NCBI RefSeq assembly: GCF_932294415.1
Contig: NC_065538.1
Span: 15,891,830-15,955,829, forward strand
Length of the DNA: 64,000 nt
From: Quercus robur
Lineage: Eukaryota; Streptophyta; Magnoliopsida; Fagales; Fagaceae
Direction of reading: 5' to 3'
In this document: piece after piece, positions 27,088 to 59,886 of the stretch
Layout of the letters: each line of letters begins with the position of its first letter
Numbering within the stretch: the stretch's first letter is position 1
The notes under the pieces: generated by a model
Databases searched by the model: none
Seen by the model: only the letters and a program-made list of their open reading frames with translations
Told to the model about the DNA's origin: nothing
Position numbers and translations under genes: made by a program

Positions 27088-28197
27088 TGTAAGGTTGAAT
27101 TTATTCAACCATCTAATTGGCTTTATTCCGTGCCAAATTTGCTTGTAATTCAGCATTTAGTAACCCTGTATTTAGGTGGGATTGTTGTAAGGGTAGTGAG
27201 TGAGATAGAGTGAAGTTTGCTCAAGAGTGTGCAAGAAAACAGAGTGTCGCAGCTGGGACTCGCGGGTGGACTCGCGGCTTCAACCCGCCAGAAGATGCAC
27301 ACGTGCCAAGCATGCTGGAAGATGAACAGTCATGCTAGCTGGAGCACTACAGGACAAAACAGGACAACTGGCCATACGGTTAACTCGCGACTGGATCTCG
27401 CTACTTGGTCAAGCCGCGAGGTCAAGCCGCGAGCCACCCCTGTTTTGGAAAAACCTGACGTTTCGCATTCCTCTTCACTCCAGTATAAATACCCTTTTAA
27501 CCCACGATTGAAAGAGAGCTTCCAGAGAGAATTTTGAGAGAGAAACCCTAAAGAAAAACCAGATTGTTTCACCCACAATCTCTACCTTAGAGTCTCATCA
27601 AAATCCCTCACTCTCTTCCTCTCCATTGTCAAATCCTTGAGAGGCTTTATACCAAACCTGGTTCTCACCATTATCATCTCTGTGAGACAGTCGTTTGGAG
27701 TTCTGGGAAGCAGTTAGGAAGGAGCCAATATTCATTGGTTGATGCTACGGTGTAGTAGCGAAATCCGGAAAGCTAGAAAAGAAAAAGGTTCGGCGCAACC
27801 TCGTTGGAGCAAGAAGCTTGGAGGGCTTAGGTGCATTGGGTAGATTAGGCTTGGAGGGTCTATTGCTGTCCTTGTATCCCAACTGTATTTTCTAGTGGAT
27901 TGATTACCGCTTGGAGGGCGGCGGAGAGGTTTTTCGCCGAGGTCTTCGGTTTCCTCTTCGATAACATATCTGGTGTTATCTCTGTGTTTGCATCTTCCTT
28001 CCTCTCTATCTCTTCCTTTACATTATCTGCTGTGGTTTATTTTGTTGTGGCTTAGATAGTTGTTTAATCAATTCCATATTACAGCATATGTTAAGTTTCC
28101 GCACACTAGTTGTTTAACATATTGCTTGTGTTGGTTAAGTTGGTTTTTGGGGGTCTAAACGTTCAAAAGTGTTTTTGTACACGTTTTTGAACTTTCA
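27088..28197 (+). repeat. 5' LTR of element A
   Basis: 1110 bp, TGTAAGGTTG to GAACTTTCA. U3 carries about seven CGCG motifs at 27245-27440. The TATAAAT box at 27484-27490 sits directly after them. Confidence 0.95.
27245..27490 (+). promoter_or_regulatory. U3 promoter of element A
   Basis: Repeated CTCGCGACT, GCCGCGAG and CTCGCGGGT motifs lead into TATAAAT at 27484-27490. The arrangement is repeated in all LTRs of the family. Transcription would start about 30 bp downstream, in the stretch with AGAGAGCTTCCAGAG. The binding factor is unknown. Confidence 0.65.
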
Positions 28198-28199
28198 AT

Positions 28200-28211
28200 T
28201 GGTATCAGAGC
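28200..28211 (+). other. Primer binding site of element A
   Basis: TGGTATCAGAGC two bases after the LTR; initiator tRNA-Met type. Confidence 0.92.
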
Positions 28212-28268
28212 GGGTACACAGCTGTTTGGTTTCATTACCATTGTGTGATCCTTGACTCCCTTTTTGAG

Positions 28269-30237
28269 ATGGATAGGTCTCAATCCCTTAATGCACCTCC
28301 ATATTTTGATGGAAGTAATTATGCATTTTGGAAGGTTCGTATGAGAGCTTTTTTATGCTCTATTGATGAATCCGTGTGGGATGCTGTTGAGATTGGTTGG
28401 ACCAAACCTGAGGCAGCCAAATCCACATGGGATAAGGCAGCACTTGCTGCATCTAATGCTAACAGTAAAGCACTAAATGCTATTTTCTGTGGTGTGTCTC
28501 CAGATGAATTTCACAGGATTTCTCACATTACCATTGCCAAAGATGCATGGGAGATTCTGGAAACAACTTATGAAGGCACGAAGAAAGTAAAGATACCAAG
28601 TTACAAATGCTGACCACTCGGTTTGAGGAGCTCAAGATGAGTGAGGATGAGTCTTTCGACTATTTCTATGGGAAGTTAAATGAAGTGGTTGACAGTAAGT
28701 TTAACTTGGGGGAGAAGAGGGAGGACTCAAAGATTGTAAGGAAGATCCTTCGATCATTGCCGGAAAGCTTCCGTGCTAAAGTGACAGCCATTGAAGAGAG
28801 CAAGGATCTTGACGACATCAGAGTACAGGAGCTGTTCGGTTCTCTGCAGACCTATGAGATGTCGCTGCCAAATCAACGGAAGAGCAAATCCCTTGCTCTA
28901 AAGACCACTAATGAGAAGGTGGAAGATCAAGGCTCATCGGGAGAAGATATGGTGGACAAGGATGTAGCCTATCTTGTTAAAAATTTCAAGAAGTTTTTGA
29001 AATTCAAAAACAATGGAAAATTTGATGATAAGAGAAAATTCCAAAATTCTGGAAGGGAGAAGAGGGATTTCAAAAGGAAAGATGGAAAAGAATCCCAATC
29101 CACACAAGGTGTCACTTGTTTTGAATGCAACGGGCATGGACACTTCAAGAAGGAATGTCCTAATTATTTGAAATCGAAAGGCAAGGTGTATGCCACAACC
29201 TTGAGTGATTCAGACTCGTCCGACTCAGAATCTGAAGAGAGCTGTGATGGAGAAGGGAACTATTCAGCTTTCATGACTATTGCTCATGTCGAGTCTTCAG
29301 ATGAGTTGAGTTTGCTTGTTCAAGACCATGGAGAACATAGTAATGATGAATCACTAGGAATTGTTGAAGAATCGGAAGCTGAAGAAGAAGAAAGCACAGC
29401 AACTCTTCAAGAAAATTACAACTCACTCTTGGAGAAGTCGGGTGAATACACAAGGGTAGCCAAGGCTGCTGTGAGAAAGATGAAGAAGGCTGAGGAGGAC
29501 TACAAAAGTCTCCTAATCCGGTATAGGGAGGCCAAATGCGAGATTGAAACTTTGAATGGTGAGCTGTCCGAAGCTTACACTAAAGTAAGATTTCTTGAGA
29601 ATGAGGTGATGCAAGCAAATGCTAAAATAGAGAGGGTCACCACCAAGAAGCTAGATGATGTTATATCATCCAAAAGAACTTCTCAGACAAATCCGGACTG
29701 GGATATACCGGAGGAGGTAGTTCAACTGGAAATATCACCAAAGAAGTGAAGTTTGTCAAAGTCAAAGATCCAGTTGTAGCTGACCCTACTGATGTGAAGC
29801 TCGAGGTGGAGGAGAAGAAGAATGTGGTGGACCAACGGATGCTGAATCATCGTAATCAGTATGTGGGCAGGTCTGAGTCTCGTGCCAAGTCACGTCCTCG
29901 ACCACAAAGAGGTCCTAGAGGAATGTATGTGTGCCATTATTGCGGACTTCAAGGGCACACTCGACCAAATTGCCAAAAGCTGAGAGCAAAGAACAGTGCA
30001 ACTCCTCAAAGGTCAGGAGGACCAAGAATTGATAGGAAAACTTGGGCAGGTGATCAACCTAGAGAGCAAAATGGAGATCCCGGAATGATGAACGTGATGA
30101 AGATGATTGGTGCATTCACCAACTGTTTGGAAAGCTTCTCACGAAGGTTTGAAAGCCCTAACTCCCGTACCCAATCCTTTAAGGAAATCACCCCAAACGC
30201 AAGTGACGTGTGGGTGAAAAGGGGTACTCATGCATAA
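28269..30237 (+). pseudogene. gag of element A (two frameshifts)
   Basis: The same protein as the intact gag of B. It starts MDRSQSLNAPPYFDGSNY at 28269, then a UBN2-type capsid region, zinc knuckle CFECNGHGHFKKEC, an acidic Ser-rich linker, a coiled coil, zinc knuckle CHYCGLQGHTRPNC, and the end VWVKRGTHA. A one-base deletion near 28588 and a net one-base loss near 29675 put the three segments in different frames, so the full Gag cannot be made. The stop falls just after the second knuckle, before any protease. Gag would form the cytoplasmic virus-like particle. Confidence 0.9.
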
Positions 30238-58100: not shown

Positions 58101-58699
58101 TCACAAATTTGAGTGATGCTCAGCAAATTCGCCTTCAGCCCTTTTATGTACAGCACATCTTTCAACAGCGGCAGACCAGGTATCTCAATGGTTCCTTTGC
58201 CTAGGACTTGAGCATGACTTCCATCACCAAAGGTCACATAGTCACCAACCTTTTCTTTGAGTGTCTTAAACAGTGACTTATCCCCTGTCATATGGCGAGA
58301 ACACCCACTGTCAAGATACCACAAACACACATTAAACACCTTCAATGAGGTATGCACAAATAGGTTCACATGTGACAAACATTCCTGACCTTAAAACACA
58401 AACTCATCATTAGTTTTCATACTTCTTTCAGATTGATTTTTCATTTTCAGATTCTCAATCATCTCACACAACATTCTATTCTTTCTTTTATATTTCTTAA
58501 TCAATGATTTAGATTCAGATATGCTACTGTGTAAGACATGATTCTGATTTTCAAGATATTCCAGCATGTGAACAAATACTTTAGCATGTTTCTTAGTTTT
58601 TAACAACTCTACGAGATCATTAGAAAAACACCTTTCAGACATATGCATAGAGTCATTTTCACAAACACTTAAGCTACAATTCAGCATGGTATTTTCCAT
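55190..58699 (-). pseudogene. pol: pol of element E (protease, integrase, RT, RNase H; four nonsense codons)
   Basis: One frame from ATG 58699 (MENTMLNC). A ~100-residue Lys-rich leader with no Gag domain leads to protease WYLDSGCSRHMTGD, the pre-integrase zinc finger (LWHHRFGHAN, CGACQLGK) and the integrase core (DLMGPTRTE, VDDYSRYTW, SDHGREFE). RT follows, with MDVKCAFLNGYLNEEVF and the YVDD catalytic motif at 56123-56134. RNase H has YSDADWAG, STAEAEYIA, CDNTSAI and a HSKSKHIEIRYHFIRD end. Internal stops: 58391-58393 (leader/protease), 57461-57463 and 57422-57424 (integrase), 55877-55879 (RT/RNase H). All lie in the same frame and there is no indel, so decay is recent. Same architecture as D. 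Pol enzymes would act inside particles built from a separate Gag. Confidence 0.92.
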
Positions 58700-58764
58700 A
58701 ACAACAACCACAACACAGGGGTCTAGGATCACACTTAGGTAATAAAACCACAACAAGTGTACCC

Positions 58765-58776
58765 ACTCTGATACCA
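58765..58776 (-). other. Primer binding site of element E
   Basis: Plus ACTCTGATACCA, i.e. TGGTATCAGAGT on the coding strand; one base differs from the other elements at the last position. Confidence 0.85.
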
Positions 58777-58778
58777 AT

Positions 58779-59886
58779 TGAAAGTTCAAAAACGTGTACA
58801 AAACACCTTTGAACGTTTAGACCCCCAAATTACAACTTAACCAATTCAAGCAATATGTCAAACAATTAATGTTCGGAAACTTAACATATGCTATAATATG
58901 GAATTGGTAAAAACTATCTAAGCCAAAACAAAATATAATCCACAGCAGATAATAAAAAGGCAAAGATAGAGAGGAAGGAAGATGCAAACACAAAGACAAC
59001 ACGCGATGTGTTATCGAAGAGGAAACCGAAGCCCTCGGCGTAAAACCTCTCCGCCGACCTCCAAGCGGTAAACAATCCACTAGAAAATACAGTTGGGATA
59101 CAAGGACAGCAATAGACCCTCCAAGCCTAATCTACCCAGTGCACCTAAGCCCTCCAAGCTTCTTGCTCCAACGAGGTTGCGTCGAACCTTTTTCTTTTCT
59201 AACTTCCCGGATTCCGCTACTAGACCGTAGCATCAACCAATGAAGATTGGTTCCTTCCTAACTGCTTCCCAGAAATCCAAACAGCTGTCTCACAGTGATG
59301 ATGATGGTGAGAACCAGGTTTGGTATAATGCCTCTCAAGGATTTGACAATGGAGAGGAAGAGAGTTGAGGAATTTGAAGAGACTCTAATGTATAGATTGT
59401 GGGTGAATCAATCTAGTTTTTCTTTAAGGTTTCTCTCTCAAAATTCTCTCTGGAAGCTCTCACACAATCGTGGGTAAAAGGGGTATTTATACTGGAGTGG
59501 GAGAGGAATGTGAAACGTCAGGTTTTACAAAACAGGGGTGGCTCGCGGCTTGACCTCGCGGCTTGACTAAGTCGCGAGATCCAGTCGCAAGATAACCGTA
59601 TGGCCAGTTGTCCTGTTTTGTCCTGTAGTGCTCCAGCTAGCATGACTGTTCATCTTCCAGCATGCTTGGCACGTGTGCTGCGTCTGGCGGCTTGCAGCCG
59701 CGAGTCACCCGCGATTCCCAGCCGCGAGTCTCTGTTTTCTTGCACACTCTTGAGCAATCTTCACTCTCTCTCACTCACTACCCTTACATCAAACCCACCT
59801 AAATACAGGGTTACTAAATGCTGAATTACAAGCAAATTTAGCACGGAATAAAGCCAATTAGATGGTTGAATAAATTCAACCTTACA
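58779..59886 (-). repeat. 5' LTR of element E
   Basis: 1108 bp. On the coding strand the CGCG array (complement of about 59540-59725) precedes TATAAATA (plus 59484-59491). Followed on the plus strand by the AGCTT duplication. Confidence 0.95.
59484..59725 (-). promoter_or_regulatory. U3 promoter of element E
   Basis: CGCG repeats leading into TATAAATA on the minus strand, the same layout as in A and B. Confidence 0.6.

What the first reader, a model, noticed from the sequence alone, without database searches (positions are those of the whole stretch)
27088..59886. Split retrotransposon system: Gag-only and Pol-only elements share one set of LTRs
A and B carry a large Gag and no pol. D and E carry a full protease-integrase-RT-RNase H order and no Gag domain or zinc knuckle. 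The split is not local damage: in D the short leader reads open into the protease, E has the same leader, and Gag in A, B and C stops at the same place (VWVKRG or VWMRKG end) before the protease. LTR ends, PBS, purine tracts, U3 motifs, non-coding segment and accessory ORF are shared, so RNAs of one class could be packaged and copied by proteins of the other. Related dependence is known for BARE2 on BARE1, but a reciprocal gag/pol partition within one family would be new to me.
Basis: partly seen in the sequence, partly recalled or inferred. Interest (0 to 1): 0.88.

Follow-up and report, generated by a model that had tools for sequence, protein, structure and literature searches.

The report
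Split gag and pol oak retrotransposon
In an oak genome, one family of copia-type jumping genes is divided into elements that encode only the particle protein and elements that encode only the copying enzymes, both inside the same terminal repeats, so each kind seems to need the other; such a division is known from maize and is described here in oak.

Summary
The core observation holds. The host is almost surely Quercus robur. A and B are Gag-only; D and an interrupted copy are Pol-only; LTRs, PBS and PPT are shared. Errors: D's leader is closed by a stop codon, the interrupted Pol copy is truncated, and D's accessory ORF is only about 36% identical to A/B's.

It is not local damage. In the own genome the 128 best Pol matches have frames of at most 1238 aa, 74 of them 1160 aa or more; fused Gag-Pol would be near 1660. 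In 30 of 30 fetched Pol loci the Pol-only leader precedes the protease, without sense Gag. Of 120 Gag relatives, 20 reach the C-end and all 20 stop at one point (4 named, Quercus suber; 16 unnamed). The halves tile a fused relative at one residue, and Gag and Pol trees place both clades beside the same fused relatives. Pol (dN/dS 0.057) and Gag (0.22) are under purifying selection. A/B LTRs nest among Pol-only LTRs.

Best explanation: reciprocal gag/pol partition of a Sirevirus, working by mutual trans-complementation (inferred). The kind is in print (maize Cinful/Zeon, 25 maize families; PMC8547701). The genome-wide Gag search did not complete.

The parts
27088..35480 (+). Element A, Gag-only; LTRs 27088-28196 and 34371-35480 (99.4% identical); TSD ATCAT
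28272..30237 (+). A gag (Retrotran_gag_2, CCHC), broken by two frameshifts, ends VWVKRGTHA*
32396..33541 (+). A accessory ORF, PF20167 (putative plant transposon protein)
34361..34368 (+). A terminal PPT AGGGGGAG, 10 bp before the 3' LTR; further copies at 33557, 33576, 33614
36997..45392 (+). Element B, Gag-only; LTRs 99.4% identical; TSD AAATG
38181..40148 (+). B gag, intact (655 aa from the ATG), ends VWVKRGTHA*
42306..43451 (+). B accessory ORF, PF20167
50273..59886 (-). Element D, Pol-only; LTRs 98.4% identical; TSD AGCTT
55190..58699 (-). D pol frame: leader, protease, integrase, RT, RNase H; four in-frame stops, no frameshift
52115..53209 (-). D accessory ORF, PF20167, about 36% identical to that of A/B
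30337..31720 (+). non-coding segment shared with D 53689-55075 (88%) and with B; starts about 100-115 bp after the ORF stop in A and D
5449..9171 (+).
15840..16598 (+). Rest of element C: RT end and part of RNase H, then truncated
9172..15839 (-).
13638..14660 (-). E ORF from its first ATG, ending VWMRKGSYG*
47463..49185 (-). F: 3' LTR plus about 600 bp of 3' internal region of the same family
28196..28210 (+). LTR end + PBS CAATTGGTATCAGAG; same at 38105 (+), 6547 (+), 58766-58780 (-), 14724-14738 (-)

Best explanation
This is one Sirevirus-like Ty1/copia family of oak, split into two complementary element classes. Gag-only elements encode the capsid/nucleocapsid protein. Pol-only elements encode protease, integrase, RT and RNase H behind a short leader of their own. 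Both descend from one ancestral fused Gag-Pol element (trees and exact tiling). Shown: the structures, the common Gag stop, the Pol-only form in the scored copies of the own genome and in two Castanea proteins, purifying selection on gag and pol, and LTR sharing between classes. Inferred: the proteins complement each other in trans. Gag from one class makes the particles, Pol from the other matures, copies and integrates both RNAs, which carry the same PBS, PPT and LTR ends; template switching between co-packaged RNAs keeps the LTRs alike. Least certain: how Pol enters the particle without a Gag fusion (binding to the shared RNA, or the Pol leader docking on Gag's long helix).
For: Own genome: the 128 best Pol matches have frames of at most 1238 aa, 74 of them 1160 aa or more, while frames up to 1607 aa occur among 150 scored copia RT hits; 30 of 30 Pol loci with leader (one partly deleted) and no sense Gag upstream; three longer stretches with leader-pol and accessory ORF (frameshifted in one), no Gag, compared LTR parts 100, 100 and 99.5% identical. 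Gag relatives: 20 of 120 listed reach the C-end and 20 of 20 stop there (4 named, all Quercus suber, 16 unnamed). Two Castanea gene models carry the Pol leader and no Gag. Tiling: Gag aligns to residue 618 of fused P0243, Pol from residue 618. Trees: Gag rows one clade (15 rows, 100/100), Pol-only rows one clade (4 rows, 100/100), both beside fused P0243 and Juglans P0325. Selection: C-D pol dN/dS 0.057 (0.042-0.075, 911 codons); A-B gag 0.22 (0.13-0.36); 30 Pol loci ratio of means 0.058. LTR tree: A and B LTRs group with Pol-only L039/L040 (100/100), up to 97.7 and 97.9% identical. A and B have target duplications although they encode no integrase.
Against: The genome-wide Gag search did not complete, so Gag-only is seen only in the window (2 elements) and in database proteins, of which no Castanea one reaches the Gag end. 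Only 128 of 9002 Pol candidates were scored, the best ones; 54 of them have broken frames that say little alone; a fused copy among diverged candidates is not excluded. One of the 120 Gag hits, the Quercus suber gene model P0062, carries an RT domain ahead of Gag. Other copia families with frames of 1300-1607 aa (content not checked) live in the genome and could supply either half. The Pol leader is weakly constrained (C-D 0.53, interval 0.27-1.08; 0.63 among 24 loci). In one search intact Fagaceae Pol-only frames were themselves missing from the database, so absence of fused ones there means little. No expression or particle data.
Confidence: 0.8

Rival explanations
1. A fused autonomous Gag-Pol master with the same LTRs exists, and A/B and D are separate deletion derivatives that parasitise it.
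For: Fused relatives exist in other plants, and the genome was not searched exhaustively (128 of 9002 candidates scored; Gag side not answered).
Against: No scored frame exceeds 1238 aa although 74 are long; 30 of 30 loci have the leader; the Gag stop is the same in 20 of 20 relatives, 4 of them named Quercus suber; the Pol leader is shared with Castanea; purifying selection on both genes in the split copies; each class is one clade.
Confidence: 0.12
2. Each class depends on an unrelated fused copia family: Gag-only copies borrow Pol, and Pol-only copies borrow Gag, from outside the family (as Tos17 is thought to use Lullaby Gag).
For: Other copia RT hits with frames of 1300-1607 aa are present, content not checked; Tos17 precedent (PMC3977881, section 4 read).
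Against: The halves are complementary and from one ancestor, share PBS, PPT and LTR lineage, and keep purifying selection on their own genes.
Confidence: 0.06
3. Two formerly separate lineages merely converged on the same LTRs by recombination and are now inactive relics without functional partnership.
For: Window copies A, C and D are damaged; LTR and coding divergence differ (A-B LTR 1.3-1.6% vs gag dS 0.088).
Against: Compared LTR parts 99.5-100% identical and long open frames in three Pol-only stretches; 74 of 128 frames of 1160 aa or more.
Confidence: 0.02

Closest known systems
Maize Cinful (pol) / Zeon (GAG), RLG00001, and 25 maize LTR families with GAG and POL in separate copies (PMC8547701, passages read)
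   Same: gag and pol in different copies of one LTR family, under 1% of copies with both, LTRs kept alike; said to approach a mutualism
   Different: RLG00001 is Gypsy (code, recalled). Here a Sirevirus-like copia, cut at the gag/pol boundary, Pol-only form shared by two Fagaceae genera, with dN/dS and matching trees, and a leader on Pol
TR-GAG elements, e.g. AT5TE33540 (PMC8704663, passages read)
   Same: LTR element with Gag only; reported to transpose in Arabidopsis ddm1
   Different: There a potentially autonomous relative exists in the subfamily; here no fused member was found among what was scored
Tos17 of rice (PMC3977881, section 4 read)
   Same: copia element with Pol only, clean gag loss, active
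   Different: Gag thought to come from another element (Lullaby); no Gag-only sister class reported in the section read
BARE2/BARE1 (PMC3735527, passages read)
   Same: Gag-deficient copia packaged in another element's particles
   Different: BARE1 makes its own Gag, so dependence is one-sided
Athila of Arabidopsis (PMC2410132, passages read)
   Same: whole Gag-only families, purifying selection, recombination between families
   Different: Gypsy; all potentially autonomous pol-bearing Athila also have gag
HeT-A / TART of Drosophila (PMC5537684, passages read)
   Same: one element supplies a Gag function, another Pol
   Different: non-LTR; TART also has its own gag

Membership tests
Sirevirus (Ty1/copia, Pseudoviridae) | PPT octamer AGGGGGAG 10 bp before the 3' LTR, then AT/TG; several upstream copies | tested here: met
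   feature from PMC2829016 passages. A, B and D have three upstream copies each; E's terminal copy is a variant
Sirevirus (Ty1/copia, Pseudoviridae) | CA/ATTGG + PBS TATCAGAGC | tested here: met
   5 of 5 elements for CAATTGGTATCAGAG; the next base is T instead of C in D
Sirevirus (Ty1/copia, Pseudoviridae) | large Gag with central CCHC and downstream coiled coil; long LTRs; long linker | tested here: met
   655 aa Gag, CCHC; one long helix 376-468 with block pLDDT about 46-76 in an otherwise poor model, so the coiled coil is only suggested; LTR 1.1 kb
Sirevirus (Ty1/copia, Pseudoviridae) | RT phylogeny with reference Sireviruses; polyC-rich integrase signal | not tested
   no named reference RT set was used
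Split GAG/POL family (Cinful/Zeon kind) | GAG and POL in separate copies with the same LTRs | tested here: met
Split GAG/POL family (Cinful/Zeon kind) | under 1% of copies have both | tested here: inconclusive
   no frame above 1238 aa among 128 scored Pol matches, 54 of them broken; 9002 candidates not all scored; Gag search not answered (17 calls)
Split GAG/POL family (Cinful/Zeon kind) | both proteins needed for transposition | not testable with these tools
   inferred from integration of A and B and from selection
[quoted passage not shown]
   A and B also carry a PF20167 ORF; they are like TR-GAG in lacking pol

The most novel reading that the evidence does not exclude
An obligate two-part (perhaps three-part) retrotransposon of the oak family, its Pol half at least older than the separation of Quercus and Castanea, with no fused member left: the Pol half has gained an N-terminal leader that recruits free Pol into particles made by the Gag half (compare foamy viruses, recalled), and element E, which joins a related leader to the nucleocapsid end of Gag, is a third component.
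Probability: 0.28. Interest if true: 0.75.

Novelty: new member of a known kind. Interest (0 to 1): 0.52.

Why it matters
It gives a clean, datable case of apparent mutual dependence between transposon classes: one ancestral gene cut at a functional boundary, with both halves kept under selection. That makes two open questions testable: whether cooperation between selfish elements can be stable, and how a retroelement packages Pol that is not fused to Gag.

Tried and rejected
Local damage as cause of the split: rejected. Hidden pol after the Gag stop in A, B or E: three-frame translation of about 240 nt showed none to my reading. Pol leader as a leftover of Gag: its score against B Gag is no better than shuffles (106 to 447 of 500 reach it), but it resembles the start of E's ORF (7, 1, 4 and 0 of 2000 shuffles for the leaders of C, D, P0134, P0245). 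Structure of leader + protease: useless model, pLDDT 30.5; Gag model poor except one long helix. Viral contigs: no relatives confirmed. The paper search: 10 of 10 used. A first reading of the Pol loci without turning minus-strand loci gave false 'no leader' results and was replaced. Four fused rows (P0247, P0254, P0256, P0272) fell out of the trees because a motif filter missed them; one search shows P0247 with Gag-type sequence joined to protease. Seven of 30 loci were left out of the LTR tree: L009 (it is D itself) and six with partial LTR matches.
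Full report
WHAT IS THERE. The window holds four copia-type elements with both LTRs and one interrupted element, all of one LTR family. A and B (plus strand) encode Gag and an accessory ORF. D (minus) encodes protease, integrase, RT and RNase H and an accessory ORF. F is a 3' end only, and a further relic lies near 1.4-3.3 kb. Pfam finds Retrotran_gag_2 and CCHC in B, and Pol_BBD, gag_pre-integrs, rve, SH3 and RVT_2 in D and C; the RNase H part had no Pfam match and is named from its place and from alignment with relatives. 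No element in the window has both genes. A, B, D and E have perfect 5-bp target duplications, so each was integrated as an LTR element; A and B are two independent insertions of the same Gag-only form, 97% identical, which excludes a deletion after insertion for that class.

D's leader is closed by a TAA at 58393-58391 and the frame has three more stops; the open leader in the window is C's. D's accessory ORF is only about 36% identical to that of A/B.

HOST. The own genome (785.7 Mb, 42 contigs) has contigs of 55127264, 86535673 and 50779627 bases, the lengths shown for Quercus robur records; the host is therefore almost surely Quercus robur.

GAG RELATIVES. Of the 120 best of 861 database hits (lengths up to 1188 aa were allowed, longest listed 630) 20 reach the Gag C-end and 20 of 20 stop two residues after the VW...GT motif; no protease, integrase or RT text motif was found in the 120. 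Of the 20, four are named (all Quercus suber) and 16 are unnamed. Against this: one listed hit, the Quercus suber gene model P0062, has an RT domain before its Gag. Castanea Gag proteins are among the hits (P0004, P0090), but neither reaches the end, so the stop is not shown for Castanea.

POL RELATIVES. Among long proteins (657-2091 aa; best 120 of 6418 listed) the only one named as Fagaceae is Castanea P0245, which has the leader and no Gag; Castanea P0134 is a second. Both are gene models with parts missing. Proteins with both Gag and Pol domains in that list are from other named plants or unnamed sources, at up to 61% identity. A caution: intact Fagaceae Pol-only frames are also missing there, so the absence of fused ones is weak by itself.

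OWN GENOME. Of 9002 candidates for D's protease-integrase piece the 128 best were scored. No open frame exceeds 1238 aa; 74 are 1160 aa or more, and the other 54 are broken and say little alone. A fused frame would be near 1660 aa (P0243), and 150 scored copia RT hits show frames up to 1607 aa (content not checked), so the method could have seen one. Of the 30 loci fetched, 30 have the leader upstream (L027 partly deleted) and LTR sequence before it (partial in several); the PBS motif was found in 27, in 24 of them at 386-387 nt from the protease match; none has Gag in sense orientation upstream, and one has an antisense Gag fragment at its edge. The leader is open in 21 of the 24 printed. Three of 20 wished-for longer stretches were obtained: each has leader-pol (1209, 1209, 1212 aa) and the accessory ORF (shifted in one), no Gag, and LTRs identical at 100, 100 and 99.5% over 989, 1045 and 990 bp, the 3' LTR being cut by the stretch end. 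Pol-only copies have thus moved recently. The matching Gag search was sent 17 times and never answered.

ONE ANCESTOR. Against fused P0243 (1661 aa), B's Gag aligns up to residue 618 and C's Pol from residue 618: the halves tile at the gag/pol boundary. P0243 is the best fused match for both among the fused proteins held, which were collected by Pol similarity. Trees were built from rows that I chose: 14 of the 120 Gag hits plus B, two Castanea Pol proteins plus C and D, and 24 of 28 chosen fused proteins. The Gag rows of the oak-family type (15; the stop itself is seen in B and in 7 of the 14) and the Pol-only rows (4) are each one clade with 100/100 support, and both lie beside P0243 and Juglans regia P0325, then P0259 and P0344; the Gag bootstrap had not settled. 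The split is best read as one partition of one Gag-Pol lineage in the line to the Fagaceae.

SELECTION. C and D pol: dS 0.73, dN 0.041, ratio 0.057 (0.042-0.075; 911 codons). A and B gag: 0.22 (0.13-0.36). Accessory ORF A-B: 0.16. Among 30 Pol-only loci, D included, the ratio of means is 0.058 over 435 pairs. Both genes are kept in elements that lack the other. The leader is much less constrained (0.53, interval 0.27-1.08; 0.63 in 24 loci), though its protein sequence is recognisable in Castanea.

SHARED CIS PARTS. PBS and PPT are the same. LTR identity is 93% between D and A/B but 86% between D and C: class does not sort the LTRs. In a tree of 34 LTRs (23 of the 30 loci, L039-L041 and the window's), A and B fall inside the Pol-only LTRs, next to L039/L040 (group support 100/100; best identity 97.7 and 97.9%); whether A and B form one clade there is unsettled (8% of 200 bootstrap trees). 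A and B differ by 1.3-1.6% in LTRs but by dS 0.088 in gag. Exchange of LTRs by template switching in common particles explains this; constraint on LTRs may add to it.

MECHANISM. Gag-only RNA gives particles; Pol-only RNA gives enzymes; both RNAs present the same primer sites and ends and are copied and integrated. How free Pol is packaged is open. Some Sireviruses have pol in another frame than gag (PMC2829016, passages), which could make a cut at this boundary easy.

ELEMENT E. Its ORF begins like the Pol leader (0 to 7 of 2000 shuffles reach the scores against the four leaders) and ends like Gag (score 121 against B, highest of 500 shuffles 61). It may be a third module or a relic; a genome search for it did not complete.

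KNOWN OR NEW. PMC8547701 (passages) describes maize Cinful (pol) and Zeon (GAG) and 25 maize families with GAG and POL in separate copies. The kind is known. Searches for oak and Sirevirus cases (listings only) showed none by title, which is no proof of absence. What is added is a copia case cut at the gag/pol boundary, with selection on both halves, matching trees, LTR mixing, and the Pol-only form in two genera. On checking, the odds of the boldest reading were lowered from 0.30 to 0.28 because the Gag stop is not seen in any Castanea protein.

Noticed in passing
window 9172-15839 (-): Element E: a leader-like start joined to zinc knuckles and a Gag C-end, no capsid-family match, LTRs only about 77-80% like the others; possible third class.
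   Followed up: partly
A 30337-31720, D 53689-55075, E about 12635-13480: A shared non-coding segment starts about 100-160 bp after the class-specific ORF, with a common A-rich motif at its start; role unknown.
   Followed up: partly
G000:C2 94.64, 94.74 and 94.83 Mb (L010-L012): Three very similar Pol-only loci about 95 kb apart, which may be a segmental duplication.
   Followed up: no
window 62434-63148: Tandem array with a 93-bp period.
   Followed up: no
window 22064-23395: Tandem repeat of about 610 bp, two copies 97% identical and a partial third.
   Followed up: no
window 4332-5448 and 35481-36541: An unrelated repeat (74-80% identical pieces) lies directly before element C and directly after element A.
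   Followed up: no
window 1387-3326 (+): Relic of another member of the family: end of an A/B-type accessory ORF, one PPT octamer and LTR remains.
   Followed up: partly
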